Shown here: piece after piece, positions 12,545 through 40,942 of the stretch | How the letters are laid out: the number at the start of each line of letters is the position of its first letter | Numbering within the stretch: position 1 is the stretch's first letter | Notes under the pieces: generated by a model | Told to the model about the DNA's origin: nothing | The model's database searches: none | The model's input: only the letters and a program-made list of their open reading frames with translations | Translations under genes and position numbers: made by a program | Origin: a virus | Reading direction: 5' to 3' (one strand) | IMG/VR virus record: IMGVR_UViG_3300005099_000086 | Span: 1-43,384 of that record | Length of the DNA: 43,384 bases

Positions 12545-12718
12545 ATGACGCCTGAAGTTTTCATTCTTTTAAAATCCATCAAAGATAAAATCAACGACAT
12601 TTTGTCACAGGCTATAATTCGGCCAGTTGAACTCCGACAAGATTTAAACGAAATCATTAGCAAGATTGATGATTTTGTCAGGGGGTTGGAAAATGAAAAT
12701 TATAAGAAAAAGAGTTAA
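12545..12718 (+). CDS. Hypothetical 57-aa helical protein
   Basis: Not recognised. ATG 12545 follows GGATAGGAGGATAAAA. Two amphipathic helices (EVFILLKSIKDKINDIL; ELRQDLNEIISKIDDFV), probably a helical hairpin or coiled coil. The last 26 nt overlap the ParB-methyltransferase gene. Confidence 0.5.
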   Translation: MTPEVFILLKSIKDKINDILSQAIIRPVELRQDLNEIISKIDDFVRGLENENYKKKS

Positions 12719-13940
12719 AGTAAAAGATATAAAGGTTCCGAAGGATAGGATTCGTGAAGAATTGGGGGATATAAAAGGCCTTGCCGAAAGCATCCAAAAA
12801 TACGGCCTCTTACATCCTCTCGTTTTGGATGAAAATATGACTTTAATCTCGGCTGAAAGGCGGTTGAGGGCCATTCAAATGTTAGGCTGGAAAGAGGTTG
12901 ATGCTTCAATTGTCGTTGAGGCAAACGAATTGGAGAAAAAGAAAATAGAGTTAGAAGAAAATATCCGAAGAAAAGACTTGACGTGGAGCGAAGAGGTTAA
13001 AGCTAAAAAACAACTCCATGAATTGTTGCAAAAGATGAGTGGAGGCTCGAAAAAGCTGGAGGGTTATTGGACGATTGAAGATACCGCCCAGCTTCTTGGC
13101 GAAGCTACAGGCAAAGTCTCTCAAGACCTTCAATTAGCAGAGCTAATTGAAAAGTTTCCGCAGTTAGGCAAATTAAGCAAAAAGACTCATGCACAAAAAG
13201 CCTTAAAACAACTAGAACTGGGTGTTTTTCTTGAAGGAGAAAAGAAAGGGGAAGGGCCGAAAGATGAATTTGTTATTTGTGGTGATGCCGCAAAAGTCCT
13301 TCAAAGTTTTGAGGATGAAAGTTTTGACCTTATTTTGACTGACCCGCCTTTTGGCGTAGAGTTGGACAGGACAATAAAATATAAAAGGCAGGCAGGCTAT
13401 GATGTTTATGAAGACAATACAAAATTAATTTTAGACCTCTTAGAAAAGGTTTTCCTTGAATGTTATAGGATTTTGAAGGCTGGCCGCCATGCCTTCGTTT
13501 TCTATGCCACAAAGTGGCATTGCCAAATCAAAGAACTTTTATCAAAAATTGGGTTCGTCGTTTCGCCATATCCCTTCGTCTGGTACAAGCATTCTTCTAT
13601 GGCTTTCGGCGATACGAGCATAGATTATGAAACTTGTTTTTGGGCTTACAAGCCCCCGAAAAGGCCGTGGTGTAAAGGCGAAAAGCCTTCCCTCGTCATA
13701 GATATAAGTGGCATTTTAAAGGAGCGAACACATGTGGCCGAAAAGCCTGGAGAAGTTTGGCAAAAATTCATCGAAATCGGAACATTTGAAGGTGAAGGCG
13801 TTCTTGACCCGTTTGCAGGGACAGGCTCATCGTTAATCCAAGCCTTGAGAATGGGCAGAAAAGTTAAAGGTATTGAGATAAATGAAGGCTTTGCAAGGCT
13901 GGCCAACAAAAGGCTAAAAGAAGTTTTAGAAGGGAGGTGA
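12693..13940 (+). CDS. ParB-like domain / DNA methyltransferase fusion
   Basis: 415 aa. Residues 1-110 are ParB/Srx-like (VKDIKVPKDRI; LAESIQKYGLLHPLVL; ISAERRLRAIQMLGW; ELEENIRRKDLT), followed by a helical DNA-binding-like stretch. From about residue 185 lies an adenine-N6 or cytosine-N4 methyltransferase: motif IV TDPPF with D217, later motif I DPFAGTGSS at 372-380. The order IV before I fits the beta class. It would methylate phage DNA at a sequence chosen by the ParB-like part or an internal recognition region, perhaps to evade restriction or mark replication. Start at 12693 is preferred over upstream ATGs because GGGGGTTGGAAA precedes it. Confidence 0.8.
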   Translation: MKIIRKRVKVKDIKVPKDRIREELGDIKGLAESIQKYGLLHPLVLDENMTLISAERRLRAIQMLGWKEVDASIVVEANELEKKKIELEENIRRKDLTWSEEVKAKKQLHELLQKMSGGSKKLEGYWTIEDTAQLLGEATGKVSQDLQLAELIEKFPQLGKLSKKTHAQKALKQLELGVFLEGEKKGEGPKDEFVICGDAAKVLQSFEDESFDLILTDPPFGVELDRTIKYKRQAGYDVYEDNTKLILDLLEKVFLECYRILKAGRHAFVFYATKWHCQIKELLSKIGFVVSPYPFVWYKHSSMAFGDTSIDYETCFWAYKPPKRPWCKGEKPSLVIDISGILKERTHVAEKPGEVWQKFIEIGTFEGEGVLDPFAGTGSSLIQALRMGRKVKGIEINEGFARLANKRLKEVLEGR

Positions 13941-15801: not shown

Positions 15802-15954
15802 TTATTTCTTCATTTTATGAAGAAATAGCCTCAAGTCTCTAAGACAATCTAAATAGCCAAGCCAATAAACCTTTTCAAATCCTTCCTTTTTTCTATGTTC
15901 TTTTTTGGCCTTTTTTTCTAACTCTTTAATTTTATTGTATAGTAATTCTTCCAC
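15802..15954 (-). CDS. Possible 50-aa basic protein (GTG start)
   Basis: An open minus-strand frame from GTG at 15954 to TAA at 15804-15802. It reads as a Lys/Glu-rich helix (NKIKELEKKAKKEHRKKEGF), then VYWLGYLDCLRDLRLFLHKMKK. The ribosome site is weak (AGAAG). It overlaps the end of the upstream minus gene by 23 nt, consistent with other coupled genes here. Its last codons coincide with hairpin copy 2. It may simply be a chance frame. Confidence 0.3.
   Translation of the reverse strand: MEELLYNKIKELEKKAKKEHRKKEGFEKVYWLGYLDCLRDLRLFLHKMKK
15803..15827. repeat. Hairpin family copy 2, between converging operons
   Basis: Perfect 11-bp stem TATTTCTTCAT (15803-15813) and ATGAAGAAATA (15817-15827), loop TTT, directly after the endolysin stop. 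It lies where the plus- and minus-strand operons meet, so a bidirectional transcription-stop role is plausible. No long U-run follows on either strand. Confidence 0.7.
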
Positions 15955-16270
15955 CTGATTCTTCTATGTCCAAGGCTAATTGTTTTTCTTCCTCTGTTAG
16001 AGGAATGTTCTCTAAGATGAACGCCGCATCTTTCAATGTCAGCCATATCCACAACTCTCCCTGGCCAAAGGCTACCCAAATGCCTTGACTTACGGCTTGA
16101 GGAAATTTCTTTGAAGTTTCAATCACATCCTCCAAAAGCCTTATCAAAGTTATTTTTTCTATTGTACCAAGATAAATTGCCGTACGGGCCTTTTTCAAAA
16201 CAATCGAATAGGCTGTTGTGCCTTCTTTCGTCTGGCCAACATTTATCTTCAATCTTTCGTTTTCAACCAT
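15932..16270 (-). CDS. Hypothetical 112-aa protein
   Basis: Not recognised. Last well-supported gene of the minus-strand operon. Beta-rich first half (YSIVLKKARTAIYLGTIEK), helix, then a Trp-rich strand pair (GIWVAFGQGELWIWLTL). Ribosome site GGCAGGTAGGAAA. It could be a small transcript- or virion-associated protein, but nothing proves it. Confidence 0.55.
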   Translation of the reverse strand: MVENERLKINVGQTKEGTTAYSIVLKKARTAIYLGTIEKITLIRLLEDVIETSKKFPQAVSQGIWVAFGQGELWIWLTLKDAAFILENIPLTEEEKQLALDIEESGGRITIQ

Positions 16271-16364
16271 TTTCCTACCTGCCTAAAAGGCCAACTCAGA
16301 ATCAGATAAGCGGAGGAAATAAGGAACATGACTAAAGAACCAAGTTTACTAACATTGATATGTC

Positions 16365-16520
16365 TCATCTGTTCCTCCCCCTGCCTCTGCCTCTGCCTCG
16401 CCCATATCCTGGCCCGCCTTCAGGACAAGGCCCTCGTCTTCTATTTCTCCTGCCTCCGCCTGGCATGCCTCTGCCTTTGCCCATGCCAGTTTTTTGGCCA
16501 TATCTTCTTCTTACATTCAT
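16365..16520 (-). CDS. 51-aa Gly/Arg-rich (RGG-like) protein
   Basis: A minus-strand gene with GGAGGATAG just before its ATG. Sequence: MNVRRRYGQKTG..., then MGKGRGMPGGGRRNRRR, one Cys in GPCPEGGPGYG, and a terminal RGRGRGRGRNR. Nearly all residues are Gly, Arg, Pro or polar, so it should be disordered and nucleic-acid-binding, like RGG-box proteins. On the opposite strand the same DNA gives only Leu/Cys/Pro-rich shadow frames. It follows the Cys-rich gene at 16522 with one base between. Function unknown; DNA condensation in the capsid or a peptide substrate of the nearby ATP-grasp enzyme are speculations. Confidence 0.6.
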   Translation of the reverse strand: MNVRRRYGQKTGMGKGRGMPGGGRRNRRRGPCPEGGPGYGRGRGRGRGRNR

Positions 16521-16521
16521 T

Positions 16522-16767
16522 CTATCCTCCTTCTTGATGATTTAAATCCTCCCAATCATCTGGACTAAAGTTTTCTGCCATTTCATCCGTCAAGTCCCCA
16601 TACCAAGGCCCTTCGTCAGGCACGGAAATGGCCTGCCTGAATCTACAAGGAACTTTCTTTTCTTTTGAACACATATCCATACAAAATGCTTTTCCATTCA
16701 ACACAATTCGGCATTCACAATTTATATATTCATTTTCAGGATTTAACATACATAAATATTTTGTCAT
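16522..16767 (-). CDS. 81-aa cysteine-rich protein
   Basis: Not recognised. Six cysteines in the first 45 residues (C6, then CEC, a CMDMC block and VPC), followed by an acidic tail (DLTDEMAENFSPDDWEDLN). Cysteine spacing suggests metal binding. The start overlaps the preceding gene's stop. Neighbours are a very basic protein and the Gly/Arg-rich protein; an acidic protein between them could pair with either. Confidence 0.55.
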   Translation of the reverse strand: MTKYLCMLNPENEYINCECRIVLNGKAFCMDMCSKEKKVPCRFRQAISVPDEGPWYGDLTDEMAENFSPDDWEDLNHQEGG

Positions 16768-16973
16768 TTCTTCTTCCTCCTCCCCTTAGGCCTAATTTTT
16801 TTGAGGACATTTAAAGCCAAATTACATTGCAAAAATGTTCTAGTCTTTTTGCCTCTTGCTAGAATTGGCCTGCAAAACTCCTCAATTGTTTTGCCTGCCC
16901 TTCTGGCTTTCTTCCTCAAAGCTCCTGGTCTTTTGATTGCCTGTTGAATCCATTTCTTTTTTCTTTGAGCCAT
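16764..16973 (-). CDS. 69-aa basic phage protein (KWIQxAIKRPGALR family)
   Basis: Starts MAQRKKKWIQQAIKRPGALR, a segment I have seen in many small phage proteins of unknown function, and ends in a Lys/Arg tail (KKIRPKGRRKKK). Strong ribosome site GGGAGGAG. The first 92 nt overlap, in another frame, the end of the ATP-grasp gene. Very basic, so probably nucleic-acid-binding. Family resemblance is from memory. Confidence 0.6.
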   Translation of the reverse strand: MAQRKKKWIQQAIKRPGALRKKARRAGKTIEEFCRPILARGKKTRTFLQCNLALNVLKKIRPKGRRKKK

Positions 16974-19191
16974 TTTCTCCTCCCGACGGGATGTAATATC
17001 CCCAATCCTTAACGGATTGAAGGTCTAAGCCTTCCCCTATGTCGGGTCTATAAAACATAGGATAGGTTGCTACTTCCTTCAAAACATCATACATCATTTG
17101 GCTCGCTTCATCAATCGTTTGGCCCCATCCTACGCATGTTCCTAACTCTCCGTCTGTTCCGCCGCACCTTAAAACTTCATCCAAATAGACGTCTAAAAAA
17201 ACGATGTTTTCTAAATGCCTTTTCTTGAAATGTGTAAAAAGCGGAGCCCCTACATAGGCTTTGTCAACCCTGCCGTAAGGCCATTGAGGCACACAAAACC
17301 TCACTCCAGTTATCCATTCAGCTTTAGGATGAAAGTCTCCGAATTGTCCTCTTGCAATATCGCTATAAACTTTGCCCCATTCATCTTCCACGCCTAAAAG
17401 TTGGATGTATGTTGCAGGATAACCCTGACGGGCAGTAAATTCGAGGAACCAAGCCCCATCCTCGTTGAGGATGCAATTTACATCCAAAGGCCCTGGCGGA
17501 TAGCCCTCAAGATGGGGGATAAGCCTGGCAAAAGTCTCATCGTAGAGTTTTCCAAGCTCACTTCCATAATAAAAGACGACCGAACCGCATTCGCCCGTAA
17601 AAGGGGCAGTGTCACTATAAGTCCTCATTAACGGCTTATATTCAAAAGTTGATTGGCCACAAAACATAGGCATACCACTTCTGCGGACATAAACTATGTG
17701 GTTAGGGACTTCGCAGGAATAAACATAACCTTTGTAACTTACTTTCTTAATCTTTTTAGGATTCAAGGTTGCATCATACTTGTGATAATATAGATAGAAC
17801 CACTCATGCTGACCTTTCGTCAGCCTTTTGATATTGGCTACATACCCTAATTTCAACAAAAGCTCCTGCACATCATCAGCTAAGGTCTTAGAGGCAGTAA
17901 AATAGACGGGCTGGTGAGCATGGCCGTCCCCTGCTGTCAAACCCTCAAAAAGGCACTCCAAATATTCTACATCAAGCTCCAACATTTCCCTAGGGATGTG
18001 CTTCTCTTTTGCGTGCCCCAGCTTTCTAAGGTAACTATAAAAAGGTTCACAATAGGTAAGGCAGAAGAATTTATCTGCATAATAATGCCACTCAGCTCCA
18101 GATGCCAAAGCAAAGTCCTCCACAATTTCTTGGACTAAACCAAACCGCTTACTTTTGCGGCTCTGGGCAATTATAATTTGAGGGCGACTATTCCTGCAAG
18201 AACCCTCCGCAATGTACAGCCCTAAGAAACGCAGCCACACCTTCATGTCAATGCCTGCAAAAGTGTCTTGCCTTTTGCCCCGCCATTTTGCAGTTCTAGG
18301 AATTCTTACTTGATGGGTTATCTCCCGTATTTCTTTAGATTCCAATTTATAGAGGGAATGATAGTCATAATAATAGAACTTGTGGTTAGGAGTTACGCAG
18401 AAGTTTATGCGTGTCCTTGGGCCCGACTCATAAGTCCACATTTCGCCTTCGTACCTATACTTAAATAAATGAGTCGGCTTCTGATATTCTAGAGTCCTGG
18501 ACTCGGCATTTAAGGTCGCAACTTCATCTTCCATAGACAACTGGCTAAACTTTTTCCACCCTTCTTTAGTTAAAATTTCTGTTTCTTCATCAAAGCAGTT
18601 AAAACCTGACCACTTTTTCCCGTCGTACCATCCTTCGATGGACATTTGTTGTCCATCAATCATTTCCTGTAAGACAAATCTTATTTCTTCTGTCCAATTT
18701 TTCTTCCAAAAATCTAACATCCTAACCATATCCTTCCAACCTTTCGACGGATAATTTGCCCAAGTCTCGATATTTCCTGAAGGCTTCATAATATATCTCT
18801 TTTTTGTCTGTTGGACGAAGGCCTTAGCCTCATCGAAGTTCGTAAACTCCTTTTCTGGCGGAACTTTGAGGCCTGCCTTCTTGGCCAACTCCATTCCAAA
18901 CTGCCTATCCAACTCCATTTTGTCGTTCATTTCCCCTGCCCCAACGACATAATGGCCTTGACGGCGAAGCCTATCGGCAATCCGTCCAGATTTTACAGTA
19001 TCAAAGATTATGATGGTTTGGTCATCTATCCATTTTCCCCACTCCTTCTTCTCCAACTTTTTTATCATTCCATCGTAAAGATGTTTAAATCTATTTTTGT
19101 GGATATAGACCGCTACATCGTTTCCCTCAAGTTTCAACTTCATTGCAATTGGAAGACCAGCCCCATCAATCGAAAGTAAAAGAAACTTCAT
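16882..19191 (-). CDS. PurD-like ATP-grasp ligase interrupted by an intein
   Basis: 769-aa precursor; removing residues 199-513 leaves 454 aa. The extein resembles phage proteins annotated as phosphoribosylamine-glycine ligase: an N-terminal domain, then YIMKPSGNIETWANYPSKG (P-loop-like ATP-binding region), FVLQEMIDGQQMSIEGWY, and C-terminal GPLDVNCILNEDGAWFLEFTARQGYP, where metal-binding Asn/Glu sit. ATP-grasp enzymes join a carboxylate to an amine using ATP. True substrate unknown; purine synthesis is not implied. ATG overlaps the previous stop; AGAGGAG precedes it. The last 30 codons overlap the basic protein gene, and their composition (KKKEMDSTGNQKTRSF) may be a low-constraint tail. Confidence 0.75.
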   Translation of the reverse strand: MKFLLLSIDGAGLPIAMKLKLEGNDVAVYIHKNRFKHLYDGMIKKLEKKEWGKWIDDQTIIIFDTVKSGRIADRLRRQGHYVVGAGEMNDKMELDRQFGMELAKKAGLKVPPEKEFTNFDEAKAFVQQTKKRYIMKPSGNIETWANYPSKGWKDMVRMLDFWKKNWTEEIRFVLQEMIDGQQMSIEGWYDGKKWSGFNCFDEETEILTKEGWKKFSQLSMEDEVATLNAESRTLEYQKPTHLFKYRYEGEMWTYESGPRTRINFCVTPNHKFYYYDYHSLYKLESKEIREITHQVRIPRTAKWRGKRQDTFAGIDMKVWLRFLGLYIAEGSCRNSRPQIIIAQSRKSKRFGLVQEIVEDFALASGAEWHYYADKFFCLTYCEPFYSYLRKLGHAKEKHIPREMLELDVEYLECLFEGLTAGDGHAHQPVYFTASKTLADDVQELLLKLGYVANIKRLTKGQHEWFYLYYHKYDATLNPKKIKKVSYKGYVYSCEVPNHIVYVRRSGMPMFCGQSTFEYKPLMRTYSDTAPFTGECGSVVFYYGSELGKLYDETFARLIPHLEGYPPGPLDVNCILNEDGAWFLEFTARQGYPATYIQLLGVEDEWGKVYSDIARGQFGDFHPKAEWITGVRFCVPQWPYGRVDKAYVGAPLFTHFKKRHLENIVFLDVYLDEVLRCGGTDGELGTCVGWGQTIDEASQMMYDVLKEVATYPMFYRPDIGEGLDLQSVKDWGYYIPSGGENGSKKKEMDSTGNQKTRSFEEESQKGRQNN
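17653..18597 (-). mobile_element. Intein in the ATP-grasp gene (315 aa, LAGLIDADG)
   Basis: In-frame insertion of 315 residues (precursor 199-513). The N-terminal block starts CFDEETEILTKEGW; block B is TPNHKFYYY near intein residue 69. Two LAGLIDADG helices are FLGLYIAEGS and CLFEGLTAGDG; the C-terminal block is VPNHIVYVRRSGMPMFCGQ followed by Ser. The last intein residue is Gln rather than Asn, preceded by Gly rather than His. That is a rarer but known splicing variant. The flanking extein joins as GFN-STFEYKPL. Both splicing and homing-endonuclease parts look intact. Confidence 0.85.
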
Positions 19192-33170: not shown

Positions 33171-34082
33171 CTATGCCCCAGGGGATCCCCAAACCCCCCG
33201 CCAACCAGAAAATCCAACACTAAATCTTTCATAGCTTCTGAATTTTGCATCCATTGTGTCAAAATCATCTTCATGGCCAAATTCTGGACGGACACGCCAG
33301 AAGAAGTTGAGGTAATGGTCGTCTTTGCCTGCGATGAGGAACCATGCATCTTCGTCAGTCAGATAGTGGCATATCATGTATTTTAGGCCTTCATCTGCCA
33401 GGACATTAATTTCGTTGTCGCCTGTATATGGCTTATATTCTGATTCTAAAAGTTCTCTTGCGACCCATTTGTTGTTTGGATGGACAAGCAAGAGCCTTGG
33501 GCGGATGACGATTGGCATGCCTCTATCGTCTACCATGGTTTCGAAGGCATTTATTGCGGCCTGAAGGCTGGCTAGGCTGAGGTCTGCATCCACAGCTGGT
33601 CTGTTGGCAAAGGGGCCTGAACCTGCATGGCCCGCAATGTCTGGGTGGTCGGTTGCACATAAAGGCTTGCCGTCAGGGCCAGGATAAGCAGAGTTAAAAG
33701 CATGATTGAAGACGTTCCAGGCATAGACTTCCTGAGTAACCTTCATGCTTTTAGCAAGAGCTTGGCTCATTCGCCTCATAATCCCATACAAATCATCATC
33801 ATACATTTCCCTTGTTACTCTAAAGCCTAAACCGAAGGCCACGTGGGTATACTTTTTCACTTTCCCCTCAAATGGCAGGTCATAGACAATTGGAGCACCA
33901 ACAGGTTTAGGAACTGCCATTCCTAGGCTTGAGATTTCGATGTCCTCTTCGTATGCACGCCTTGAGGTGTTTACATTGAAGACTTGAGGATATTCTAAAG
34001 GCAGTGCCTTATACTTCTCCCAATAAACTTTACGAAGGCCAGGAGCCAATAAATGTGAAAATGCACTAGGTCTTGCTGGCAT
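33171..34082 (-). CDS. Major capsid protein (HK97-like, gpT type)
   Basis: 303 aa. Resembles the Mu-like major head subunit group: long N-terminal arm (MPARPSAFSHLLAPGLRKVYWEKY), FGLGFRVTREMYDDDLYG, central PDIAGHAGSGPFANRP loop, LLVHPNNKWVARELLESE, and C-terminal FLIAGKDDHYLNFFWRVRPEF. It lies between cement candidate and scaffold on one side and homing endonuclease on the other, the usual place. TTTAGGAGGTGCGCC precedes the ATG. No cleavage of the N-terminus can be told from sequence. Confidence 0.8.
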   Translation of the reverse strand: MPARPSAFSHLLAPGLRKVYWEKYKALPLEYPQVFNVNTSRRAYEEDIEISSLGMAVPKPVGAPIVYDLPFEGKVKKYTHVAFGLGFRVTREMYDDDLYGIMRRMSQALAKSMKVTQEVYAWNVFNHAFNSAYPGPDGKPLCATDHPDIAGHAGSGPFANRPAVDADLSLASLQAAINAFETMVDDRGMPIVIRPRLLLVHPNNKWVARELLESEYKPYTGDNEINVLADEGLKYMICHYLTDEDAWFLIAGKDDHYLNFFWRVRPEFGHEDDFDTMDAKFRSYERFSVGFSGWRGVWGSPGA

Positions 34083-38332: not shown

Positions 38333-40942
38333 TCAATAGCCAGTCGTGCTGGCTATTCTTTTTAAAGTTTCTTCGTACCATTCATCTTGGTTCCATTTTT
38401 CCTCCCCTTCAACTTCTTCGTCTTCGCCTCTCATCGTAACCTCAGGTTCGTAAGCCAACGCATCCAAAAGATGGTCATCTCTCGAGACGGGGAAATGTAA
38501 GATTTGCCTTTCCAATTCATGAAGGCCCTTTTCGGGGAGGAAAATCATGCCATTTTCGGCCAAAGGAATAAGGCCCCTTATCCTCTGTTTTTTCGACTCT
38601 TTAGTCGAAGGCTTCACAGCTTTTAGCTGGATGAAAAAGCCTTCATTTTCCATGATGTATTTTGCAAATGGGAAGAAGATTCTTTGCGAAGCAACATCTT
38701 CAATGGCAATGCAACGGCATTTCCATTTTCTGGCAAGACGAAAAGCCTCACGCAAGAGTTTTTCAGGCTCAAATCTTCTTTGAAGTTCTTCAAGGACAAA
38801 CCTCCGGTCCTTGTAATCTCTTGCCACTACGACAATTCCCGTTGGGTCAGCTTTCTTTTTGGTTGAAACGGCAGGGTCAACAATAACTACTCTATCCATG
38901 TAGCCTAAGTCCAAGACCTCTTGAACATCTTCCTCTTTGTTGTGGATTTGAATGAGCCATTTAAATTCGTTAAATTTAAATCTGCCAAACCACGAAAGGT
39001 CAAATTCAACTGCATCTTTGGAAATTGGATTGTTTTCGTATTGGCAGGAGAAGAGGTAAGGATTTTTCTTTCGCTTTTCTTCCAACCACTCGAGTGAGAA
39101 TCTTTCTGGAAAAATTGGCTCGCCATTTTGAACCGCCGATTCGTGATAGAATGGGAGGTATTCAGGTTGGTTCTTTTCTATCCAACCTGCTAAATCATCC
39201 GTTCCCCACCTCGTGCCTACGACGAGGTCGAGGCATTTTTCAGGCACTTCCAAAAGGGATTCGGCATATTCATGCCATTGAATTGCCTCCTGAACCTTAA
39301 CCTCACTTGGAAGGCCGTCACTTCCAAGGCTATCCTCGCCAATCAAATCATCTTTTATTATGACATTGTAATGTGCCCCTGTGATTTTGCCTCCAACGCC
39401 TATACATTCAAATGTACATTCTTGCCAAGCTCCTTGACGGTTCAATGTGAGTTTTTCATTTGACCATGTAGTTTCGCTTTTCCTCTCAGGAATGCAGGCA
39501 CTAAAGATTTTTATAAAATCTTTATTTCTTTCACAAACGTCTTTTATAAGCATGATTCGGCCTTTTGCCACTCTCTCGCCTGACCCTGCAAGGAGGCATC
39601 TTATGCCGCCATTTCCAAGAACATTCAGTTCTTTGAGGAATGGGGCTAAAAGGCCCTCGCCATAAAAACTTTGGAGGTAAAGCCACATTGGAAAAACTAT
39701 GCTGAAACAAGTGGTGTTGTGGGAAACAATATCTCCTAACAAAAGAGTGTGAGTAGGATTGCTTTCTATTGAAACTATAGCCTTAGGGCCTAAATACTTC
39801 ACTTCCTTTACCCTTTCCCACGCCAAGTCGCTTTCCGCCAAGGCGGTTAAGAGCTTGTGACCTAAGAATTTCGCCGCTTTTAGGACTTTTCTTCTTGAAG
39901 TGGCATAATAATTATCTACCCTTATTCCGTATTGTCTTAGCCACCATTTCCATTTTCCTATCAAGTCTCTCCATTGAGGCGGAAACTTGTCGTATTGCCA
40001 TTCCTGCGTTGGCTGCTTATGCCATATTCCATTATCCGTAAAAGTCACTCTCCAATGTTTTTCCCCTATCTTATACAGCCTTGCTTGGATGCCAAACCTT
40101 AACAAAAGGTTTTGAACATCCCTGCAAAGCCATTCGGAAGCGGAAGTAAAGTTGGTGCCATGACGACCAGACTTGATTGTGCCGTCACATTCGAATAAAG
40201 CCCTCAAAAAGGCTTTAACTGTTTTTTCATCAGCGTAGAAAATCAATTTAGGAACTCTTTTTTCAGAAGAATTAACAAAATCAATTCCAGTGGCTCTTAA
40301 CAAATCTCGTAATTTCGCTATTTCCACTAGAGGAGTGGTGCTACTTTTGTAGTTTCTGATTATGCCCTTGGCTCCACAAATACGAGCCAAAAGGCTTACC
40401 TTTCTTAACAGCTTTCTGTTCACACTGTAAAAAGCTATTTTGTCTTTTCCTACATGCCCATCGCCTATTAGATAGCCTAACAATGCTGCCAAGCCTGGAA
40501 AATGGCCTTTTCCAAAAGGCAACTTTCTAGGCACGGCTATCCATTCTCCTTCTTTGAGTCTTTCTGCTTCTTTCCATTGCAGGAATGTAAAAACAGGATG
40601 GTTTGTCGTAACTTGTAGTTTTCTGCCTCGTTCAGTAGTTACTTCCACGCAGGGAGCGATTTGGCCAACATCCTCTATCTTATATTTGCCTTCAATGACC
40701 TTGCCATTTTGGATTTCAAATTCTGGATAATGTCTCATCTTGTAATAATAATCTCTGACAAGGCATTTAAAGTGCCCACGGGGATGAAACCTACCAATTC
40801 TTCTTCGGCCTTTCAAAATGTCTCTTGAGAGGTCGAGGAACCATTTTTCATGGAGATTCGTCAAATCCTTAAAGCCCATGACATAGGCCAAAAGGACAGG
40901 GTCAAAAAGGCACTTTGTTCGTAATTCTACAACATCTTTCAT
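38333..40942 (-). CDS. Large terminase subunit interrupted by an intein
   Basis: 869-aa precursor. Removing residues 60-409 leaves 519 aa, normal for TerL. N-terminal ATPase: PRGHFK joined to TTCFSIVFPMW after splicing restores the P-loop (the intein sits inside Walker A). Walker B is VIIKDDL at 527-533, then QYENNP. Nuclease: VIVDPAVST with D689, AIED at 746-749, and RDDHLLDALAY near 821-831. It cuts concatemers and pumps DNA into the head. Start overlaps the small terminase stop as ATGA. Confidence 0.9.
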   Translation of the reverse strand: MKDVVELRTKCLFDPVLLAYVMGFKDLTNLHEKWFLDLSRDILKGRRRIGRFHPRGHFKCLVRDYYYKMRHYPEFEIQNGKVIEGKYKIEDVGQIAPCVEVTTERGRKLQVTTNHPVFTFLQWKEAERLKEGEWIAVPRKLPFGKGHFPGLAALLGYLIGDGHVGKDKIAFYSVNRKLLRKVSLLARICGAKGIIRNYKSSTTPLVEIAKLRDLLRATGIDFVNSSEKRVPKLIFYADEKTVKAFLRALFECDGTIKSGRHGTNFTSASEWLCRDVQNLLLRFGIQARLYKIGEKHWRVTFTDNGIWHKQPTQEWQYDKFPPQWRDLIGKWKWWLRQYGIRVDNYYATSRRKVLKAAKFLGHKLLTALAESDLAWERVKEVKYLGPKAIVSIESNPTHTLLLGDIVSHNTTCFSIVFPMWLYLQSFYGEGLLAPFLKELNVLGNGGIRCLLAGSGERVAKGRIMLIKDVCERNKDFIKIFSACIPERKSETTWSNEKLTLNRQGAWQECTFECIGVGGKITGAHYNVIIKDDLIGEDSLGSDGLPSEVKVQEAIQWHEYAESLLEVPEKCLDLVVGTRWGTDDLAGWIEKNQPEYLPFYHESAVQNGEPIFPERFSLEWLEEKRKKNPYLFSCQYENNPISKDAVEFDLSWFGRFKFNEFKWLIQIHNKEEDVQEVLDLGYMDRVVIVDPAVSTKKKADPTGIVVVARDYKDRRFVLEELQRRFEPEKLLREAFRLARKWKCRCIAIEDVASQRIFFPFAKYIMENEGFFIQLKAVKPSTKESKKQRIRGLIPLAENGMIFLPEKGLHELERQILHFPVSRDDHLLDALAYEPEVTMRGEDEEVEGEEKWNQDEWYEETLKRIASTTGY
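39716..40765 (-). mobile_element. Intein in the terminase P-loop (350 aa, LAGLIDADG)
   Basis: Residues 60-409 of the precursor. Starts at Cys in CLVRDYYYKM, block B TTNHPVFTF near 54-62, LAGLIDADG helices LLGYLIGDGHV and LRALFECDGTI, and ends IVSIESNPTHTLLLGDIVSHN with the canonical His-Asn, followed by Thr as the first C-extein residue. Splicing joins GHFK to TTCF. Insertion inside the most conserved ATP-binding motif is typical of inteins. All splice blocks look intact. Confidence 0.9.

What the first reader, a model, noticed from the sequence alone, without database searches (positions are those of the whole stretch)
16365..16520. Tiny Gly/Arg-rich protein in the late operon
The 51-aa product is almost entirely Gly/Arg/Pro with an (RG)4 end, similar in composition to RGG boxes. 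It has a good ribosome site and lies in the late operon, next to a Cys-rich acidic protein and a very basic protein. RGG-like phage proteins are rarely described. It might condense DNA, bind RNA or be a modified peptide.
Basis: partly seen in the sequence, partly recalled or inferred. Interest (0 to 1): 0.55.

Follow-up and report, generated by a model that had tools for sequence, protein, structure and literature searches.

The report
Conserved glycine-arginine mini-protein of phages
A tiny, strongly basic glycine-arginine protein in this phage belongs to an apparently undescribed family shared by many different uncultured phages, usually encoded among the genes that build and fill the virus head, with cousins in a few archaea; it probably helps handle the viral DNA, but that is untested.

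Summary
The 51-aa ORF at 16365-16520 is real: minus strand, strong ribosome site, ATGA overlap with the next ORF, phage-like codons. It is not a lone low-complexity oddity. DNA pattern scans of IMG/VR found 18 other viral contigs with a 48-51-aa homolog (consensus YGxKRGAGxGRGMxGGGRRNRNxGxCxxGGPGxGRGGGRGxGRGR); genome searches added two phage-type contigs in bacterial MAGs, one probable phage contig and three archaeal homologs. Composition-preserving shuffles support homology (0 of 2000 in each of 20 comparisons), and codon changes are mostly synonymous. Pfam, NCBIfam and PDB gave nothing, PHROGs only one chance-level hit; default BLAST misses a 74%-identical pair.

In 13 of 17 phage gene-content groups the gene lies within five genes of a terminase, portal or major capsid gene. 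In the window it lies instead near the end of the late operon. The archaeal homologs sit next to a NifX-like gene, with DUF134 close by; homology to DUF5320 was not shown.

Most likely: a late, disordered, highly cationic (+16) nucleic-acid-binding accessory of head assembly or genome packaging (inferred, about 0.4). 'Condenses DNA' is plausible but untested. It is not a tandem RGG box. A new small family of a known general kind.

The parts
16365..16520 (-). 51-aa Gly/Arg-rich protein (family GRGMxGGGRRN...C...GxGxGxGxGR)
16521..16533 (-). ribosome-site-like GAAGGAGGATAGA just before the ATG, overlapping the 3' end of the 81-aa ORF
   Evidence: read
16522..16767 (-). 81-aa Cys-rich acidic ORF, immediately upstream; no family hit
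16764..16973 (-). 69-aa very basic ORF, homologous to small basic proteins of Thermus phages (WIQxAIKRPG motif)
16252..16368 (-). 39-aa ORF with a hydrophobic stretch; start overlaps the stop of the 51-aa ORF (ATGA)
15932..16270 (-). 112-aa ORF of unknown function, next in the same run

Best explanation
It is a member of an apparently undescribed family of about 50-aa, Gly-rich, strongly cationic phage proteins with a conserved GRGMxGGGRRN core and usually one Cys. Shown: the gene is real, conserved as a protein, predicted without confident structure, and in most phage groups encoded in or next to the terminase-portal-capsid module. Inferred: it is made late, binds DNA (or RNA) through its charge without a folded domain, and acts as an accessory of head assembly or genome packaging, neutralising and loosely condensing DNA at the portal or inside the head, perhaps staying in the virion. 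In the window phage the gene lies at the end of the late operon, two genes after another small basic protein.
For: Homology: first scan, 3 of 26 loci are family members, conserved far outside the C-terminal query pattern; second scan, 18 of 23 loci, conserved C-terminally outside its pattern; genome scan, 3 of 17. Shuffle test: z 7.6-16.4 and 0 of 2000 shuffles in 20 of 20 comparisons, against z 1.5-3.1 for four Gly-rich controls. Coding: synonymous codon changes outnumber non-synonymous in 9 of 9 non-identical pairs. Net charge +16 in the window, +10 to +17 over the 21 members counted. AlphaFold2 mean pLDDT 47.9, pTM 0.16. Gene order: 13 of 17 phage groups within five genes of a terminase, portal or capsid gene.
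Against: No direct evidence of DNA binding or of presence in virions. The window gene itself is about 17 kb from its capsid gene (33171-34082) and in no head cluster. In 4 of 17 groups (window, L097, L100, L149) no head gene was shown nearby. Under assumed base rates of 0.25, 0.3, 0.42 and 0.5, 13 of 17 has p of 1e-5, 1e-4, 4e-3 and 0.025; the base rate is my assumption and the groups are not fully independent. Archaeal members lie beside metabolic genes, not virion genes. A conserved Cys and the exact GRGMxGGGRRN core suggest something more specific than bulk charge, though part of that core's invariance was imposed by my search pattern. The phages compared that lack it (MW202489, OP947158, PP438425, whole records) show it is dispensable for such virions in general.
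Confidence: 0.4

Rival explanations
1. It is a metal- or sulfur-handling accessory: a Gly-rich carrier with one reactive Cys, related to a protein of the archaeal NifX-like/Mrp-type gene cluster, which phages of anaerobes borrow.
For: Three archaeal MAGs carry a homolog (z 12.0, 12.9 and 7.6) adjacent to a NifX-like gene: PF02579 scanned in L116, phmmer relatives in L148 and L151. DUF134 lies close by in all three; DUF5320 was found in the L116 and L151 clusters and not tested in L148. The Cys is kept in 17 of 18 rows of A4.
Against: One member (L105) lacks the Cys. Phage members have no such neighbours in the stretches read; they have head genes. Only one Cys, no metal-binding motif. Homology to DUF5320 itself not shown (z 0.4-4.1). 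Found in only 3 of 371 genomes sampled from that archaeal phylum.
Confidence: 0.15
2. It binds RNA (mRNA or ribosomes) like an RGG/GAR tail and modulates late translation or forms condensates in the infected cell.
For: Arg/Gly composition, predicted disorder.
Against: No tandem RGG, no RNA-binding domain, few aromatics (0-3 per member); gene order points to heads.
Confidence: 0.15
3. It is a precursor of a modified peptide (RiPP-like), or a secreted or antimicrobial peptide.
For: Small, one Cys; an intein-containing ATP-grasp/GARS-like protein is encoded a few genes upstream in the window.
Against: No leader-core pattern and no consistent modifying enzyme among the neighbours looked at in 17 groups; GARS-like matches in the window protein are below the curated cut-offs.
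Confidence: 0.05
4. It is a spurious ORF in a GGCAGA-rich repeat, or the DNA/RNA sequence (for example a G-rich structure) is what is conserved.
For: Low complexity; the opposite strand is also open in all three frames.
Against: Homologs differ mostly by synonymous codons (25 synonymous, 17 non-synonymous against L089; 20 and 12 against L065); amino-acid order, not only composition, is conserved; ribosome site and coupling.
Confidence: 0.03

Closest known systems
RGG/GAR boxes of eukaryotic RNA-binding proteins (recalled)
   Same: Arg/Gly-rich, disordered, cationic
   Different: No tandem RGG; fixed order core GRGMxGGGRRN, single Cys, free-standing about 50-aa protein, phage head gene context
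DUF5320 (PF17253) of archaea and bacteria
   Same: Gly-rich with GxGRGxGRG stretches; DUF5320 is encoded in the same clusters as two archaeal homologs
   Different: No PF17253 match in the window; shuffle z only 0.4-4.1
Small basic virion or core proteins that condense DNA, such as adenovirus mu/VII, fusellovirus VP2, T4 internal proteins (recalled)
   Same: Small, very basic, late, encoded with virion genes
   Different: No sequence relation tested or known; this family is Gly-rich and predicted unstructured; presence in virions unknown

Membership tests
The GRGMxGGGRRN family defined here | Same order of core, Cys and C-terminal GxG stretch in about 50 aa | tested here: met
   Alignments A3, A4; shuffles 0 of 2000 in each of 20 comparisons
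The GRGMxGGGRRN family defined here | Encoded within five genes of terminase, portal or capsid genes (13 of 17 groups) | tested here: not met
   For the window member: it lies about 17 kb from the capsid gene, at the end of the late run. The feature is typical, not strict
RGG/GAR box | Tandem RGG repeats | tested here: not met
   Sequence has (RG)4 and no tandem RGG
RGG/GAR box | RNA binding | not testable with these tools
   -
DUF5320 (PF17253) | Match to the Pfam model above its cut-off | tested here: not met
   No match in the window at E up to 10; none of 18 family members hit any Pfam model at E up to 10
DUF5320 (PF17253) | Sequence similarity beyond composition | tested here: inconclusive
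   Window against three DUF5320 proteins: z 4.1 (2 of 2000), 2.1, 0.4; family consensus: z 2.7, 1.2, 0.3; controls 1.5-3.1
DNA-condensing virion protein | Present in virions | not testable with these tools
   -
DNA-condensing virion protein | Strong positive charge | tested here: met
   +16 in 51 aa

The most novel reading that the evidence does not exclude
A widespread but database-invisible phage head protein family: because its composition is masked by standard searches, a conserved 50-aa cationic protein that condenses or guides DNA at the portal has been missed, and it shares ancestry with a component of an archaeal NifX-like/Mrp-type gene cluster, so phages and cells have exchanged it.
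Probability: 0.25. Interest if true: 0.75.

Novelty: new variant of a known kind. Interest (0 to 1): 0.55.

Why it matters
Small basic proteins that handle packaged DNA are known in several viruses, but here one appears conserved across phages with different portal and capsid families and is invisible to default BLAST and HMM libraries. If it is a packaging or virion protein it would add a missing part to phage head assembly; it also shows that low-complexity masking hides real conserved phage genes. The link to an archaeal NifX-like gene cluster makes the function of an uncharacterised cellular Gly-rich protein testable too.

Tried and rejected
Homology by standard search: tblastn of the 51-aa protein in phages and plasmids gave nothing, but this is uninformative, since BLASTP found no alignment between the window protein and its 74%-identical homolog, and did so only with both masking and composition statistics off. 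Pfam, PHROGs, NCBIfam: none for the window protein; over 18 members, none in Pfam and NCBIfam and one chance-level PHROG (E 3.8); PDB none.

Close relatives: scans with the 891-aa, 769-aa and joined 81+112-aa proteins found no relatives; the portal scan found two, whose records gave no match to the 51-aa protein. DNA polymerase relatives and the phage records or stretches L004-L009 and L126-L132 hold no family member (L004 is 25.5 of 44.2 kb, L005-L006 and L126-L132 are parts).

The idea that the family travels with the 69-aa WIQxAIKRPG protein was rejected: none of the 50 loci shows a family member in the stretch held, and no other family locus carries that motif.

DUF5320 as ancestor: not shown. 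Weak genome hits G374 (5.4e-5) and G982 (1.6e-5) were not followed up and are not counted.

dN/dS: 0.087/0.484, 0.122/1.347 and 0.207/2.684 for three pairs; three pairs returned no dS (saturated); the L097/L098 pair was put out of register by me (dN 1.82, dS 2.04) and is void. A weak portal-like match (1.4e-4) to an opposite-strand ORF near L097 was not counted as a head gene.

Not counted as members: 23 of 26 loci, 5 of 23, 14 of 17. L084, L076, L091 and L106 duplicate other members and were left out of A4 (L084 also of A3).

Full report
The ORF is on the minus strand at 16365-16520, encodes 51 aa with 17 Gly, 15 Arg, 4 Pro, 2 Lys and single Cys and Glu, has a good ribosome-site sequence (read), starts one base after the 81-aa ORF and shares an ATGA with a following 39-aa ORF. 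Its codon adaptation to 31 window ORFs is 0.788, at the top of their range.

The window is an IMG/VR virus record of 43384 bases. Its genes include a terminase with an intein, a portal (phrog_1216), a capsid protein (phrog_371), a family-A DNA polymerase and an M15-like endolysin. The gene lies near the end of the long minus-strand run of structural genes, so 'late operon' is a fair reading, though it is inferred from order alone.

Ordinary searches say nothing about this protein. The 51-aa query has no match in phages or plasmids by tblastn and no Pfam, PHROG or NCBIfam hit. I show below that this silence comes at least in part from how the programs treat its composition.

I therefore scanned IMG/VR for DNA patterns. 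A pattern for GYGRGRGRGR found 26 loci, of which three (L065, L076, L084) carry a 49-aa homolog whose N-terminal half, outside the pattern, is also conserved. A second pattern, for GRGMxGGGRR, found 23 loci, of which 18 are family members. A stricter pattern in one genome per species of GTDB found 17 loci, of which three (L110, L114, L116) are members and 14 are chance or other Gly-rich proteins. The consensus is YGxKRGAGxGRGMxGGGRRNRNxGxCxxGGPGxGRGGGRGxGRGR. The core's invariance is partly imposed by the patterns; a member found by profile (L149) departs from it, so the counts are lower bounds.

Homology was tested against composition. In 20 of 20 comparisons of the window protein with members, no shuffle of 2000 reached the real score (z 7.6 to 16.4), while four Gly-rich controls gave z 1.5 to 3.1. 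A 74%-identical homolog is missed by default BLASTP and seen only with masking and composition statistics off. Synonymous codon changes exceed non-synonymous ones in 9 of 9 non-identical pairs; three further pairs are identical in DNA.

Gene order. I sorted the phage-type members into 17 gene-content groups by blastp of the neighbours; they are only partly independent (L099 and L101 share terminase and portal relatives, for example). In 13 the gene is within five genes of a head or packaging gene: L065/L076/L084/L104 (capsid phrog_267), L090/L091 (portal phrog_213), L099 (portal phrog_156, terminase), L101 (capsid phrog_1357; portal by similarity), L110 (portal phrog_156 directly upstream, capsid phrog_9953), L107 (capsid phrog_371), L114 (capsid phrog_1357), L105 (small and large terminase), L093/L106 (large terminase), L095 (small terminase, weak at E 0.008; large terminase by phmmer at 1.6e-5), L098 (head protease/capsid, portal phrog_12), L108 (portal related to the window's, 1.5e-7) and L089 (capsid relative, 7.9e-5). 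In the other four (window, L097, L100, L149) this was not shown; L149 is taken as phage on gene size and order alone, since its two large neighbours had no PHROG hit. With assumed base rates of 0.25 to 0.5 the binomial p is 1e-5 to 0.025.

The archaeal side. Three archaeal MAGs of one class carry homologs (G006, G024, G378), 3 of 371 genomes sampled from the phylum. In all three the gene is adjacent to a NifX-like gene, PF02579 scanned in L116 and phmmer relatives of it in L148 and L151, with a DUF134 gene close by. DUF5320 is in the clusters of L116 and L151; I did not test it in L148. A Mrp-type ATPase, named by eye, is in L148 and L151. In the archaea the open frame runs to about 100 aa, so a longer N-terminus there is possible. 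Of paper PMC6345978 I saw passages only: they describe a bacterial Mrp/NBP35 protein with a dinitrogenase-cofactor domain that binds Fe-S clusters. That is context, not evidence for this protein.

Literature. Five full-text searches (DUF5320; glycine-arginine-rich with bacteriophage and virion; RGG motif with phage protein and others; arginine-rich and glycine-rich with phage and others; DUF134 with dinitrogenase and archaea) returned listings in which I saw no description of such a phage family (15 of 29 and 12 of 15 papers were listed). Subscription journals and preprints are largely outside that library.

How it may work. Charge is +16 in 51 aa and the model has mean pLDDT 47.9, so a stable fold is unlikely, with the caution that the alignment is shallow and repetitive. 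A late, cationic, unstructured protein encoded with terminase, portal and capsid is best explained as a nucleic-acid-binding accessory of packaging or head assembly. DNA binding, timing and virion content are all inferred. The window phage differs in placing the gene far from its head genes, which weakens the case for that phage in particular.

Noticed in passing
window 16764-16973: 69-aa basic protein related (42-47% identity in the alignment) to small proteins of Thermus phages G20c and phiFa near lysis genes, with a WIxxAIKxPG motif; a weak, below-cut-off match to fusellovirus VP2 (E 0.025). 50 IMG/VR loci encode relatives.
   Followed up: partly
window 16882-19191: 769-aa ORF that looks like an ATP-grasp/GARS-like enzyme interrupted by an intein with a LAGLIDADG domain.
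   Followed up: no
window 38333-40942: Large terminase that also appears to carry an intein.
   Followed up: no
window 12666-13940: ParB-like domain fused to a DNA methyltransferase.
   Followed up: no
L116 6035-6184, L148 4276-4422, L151 3471-3608: Archaeal Gly-rich homologs beside NifX-like and DUF134 genes; open frames of about 100 aa or more suggest an extra N-terminal part.
   Followed up: partly
L065 9274-9465 and relatives: 63-aa basic protein directly upstream of the family member, overlapping its start; a strongly basic small neighbour recurs in several family loci.
   Followed up: no
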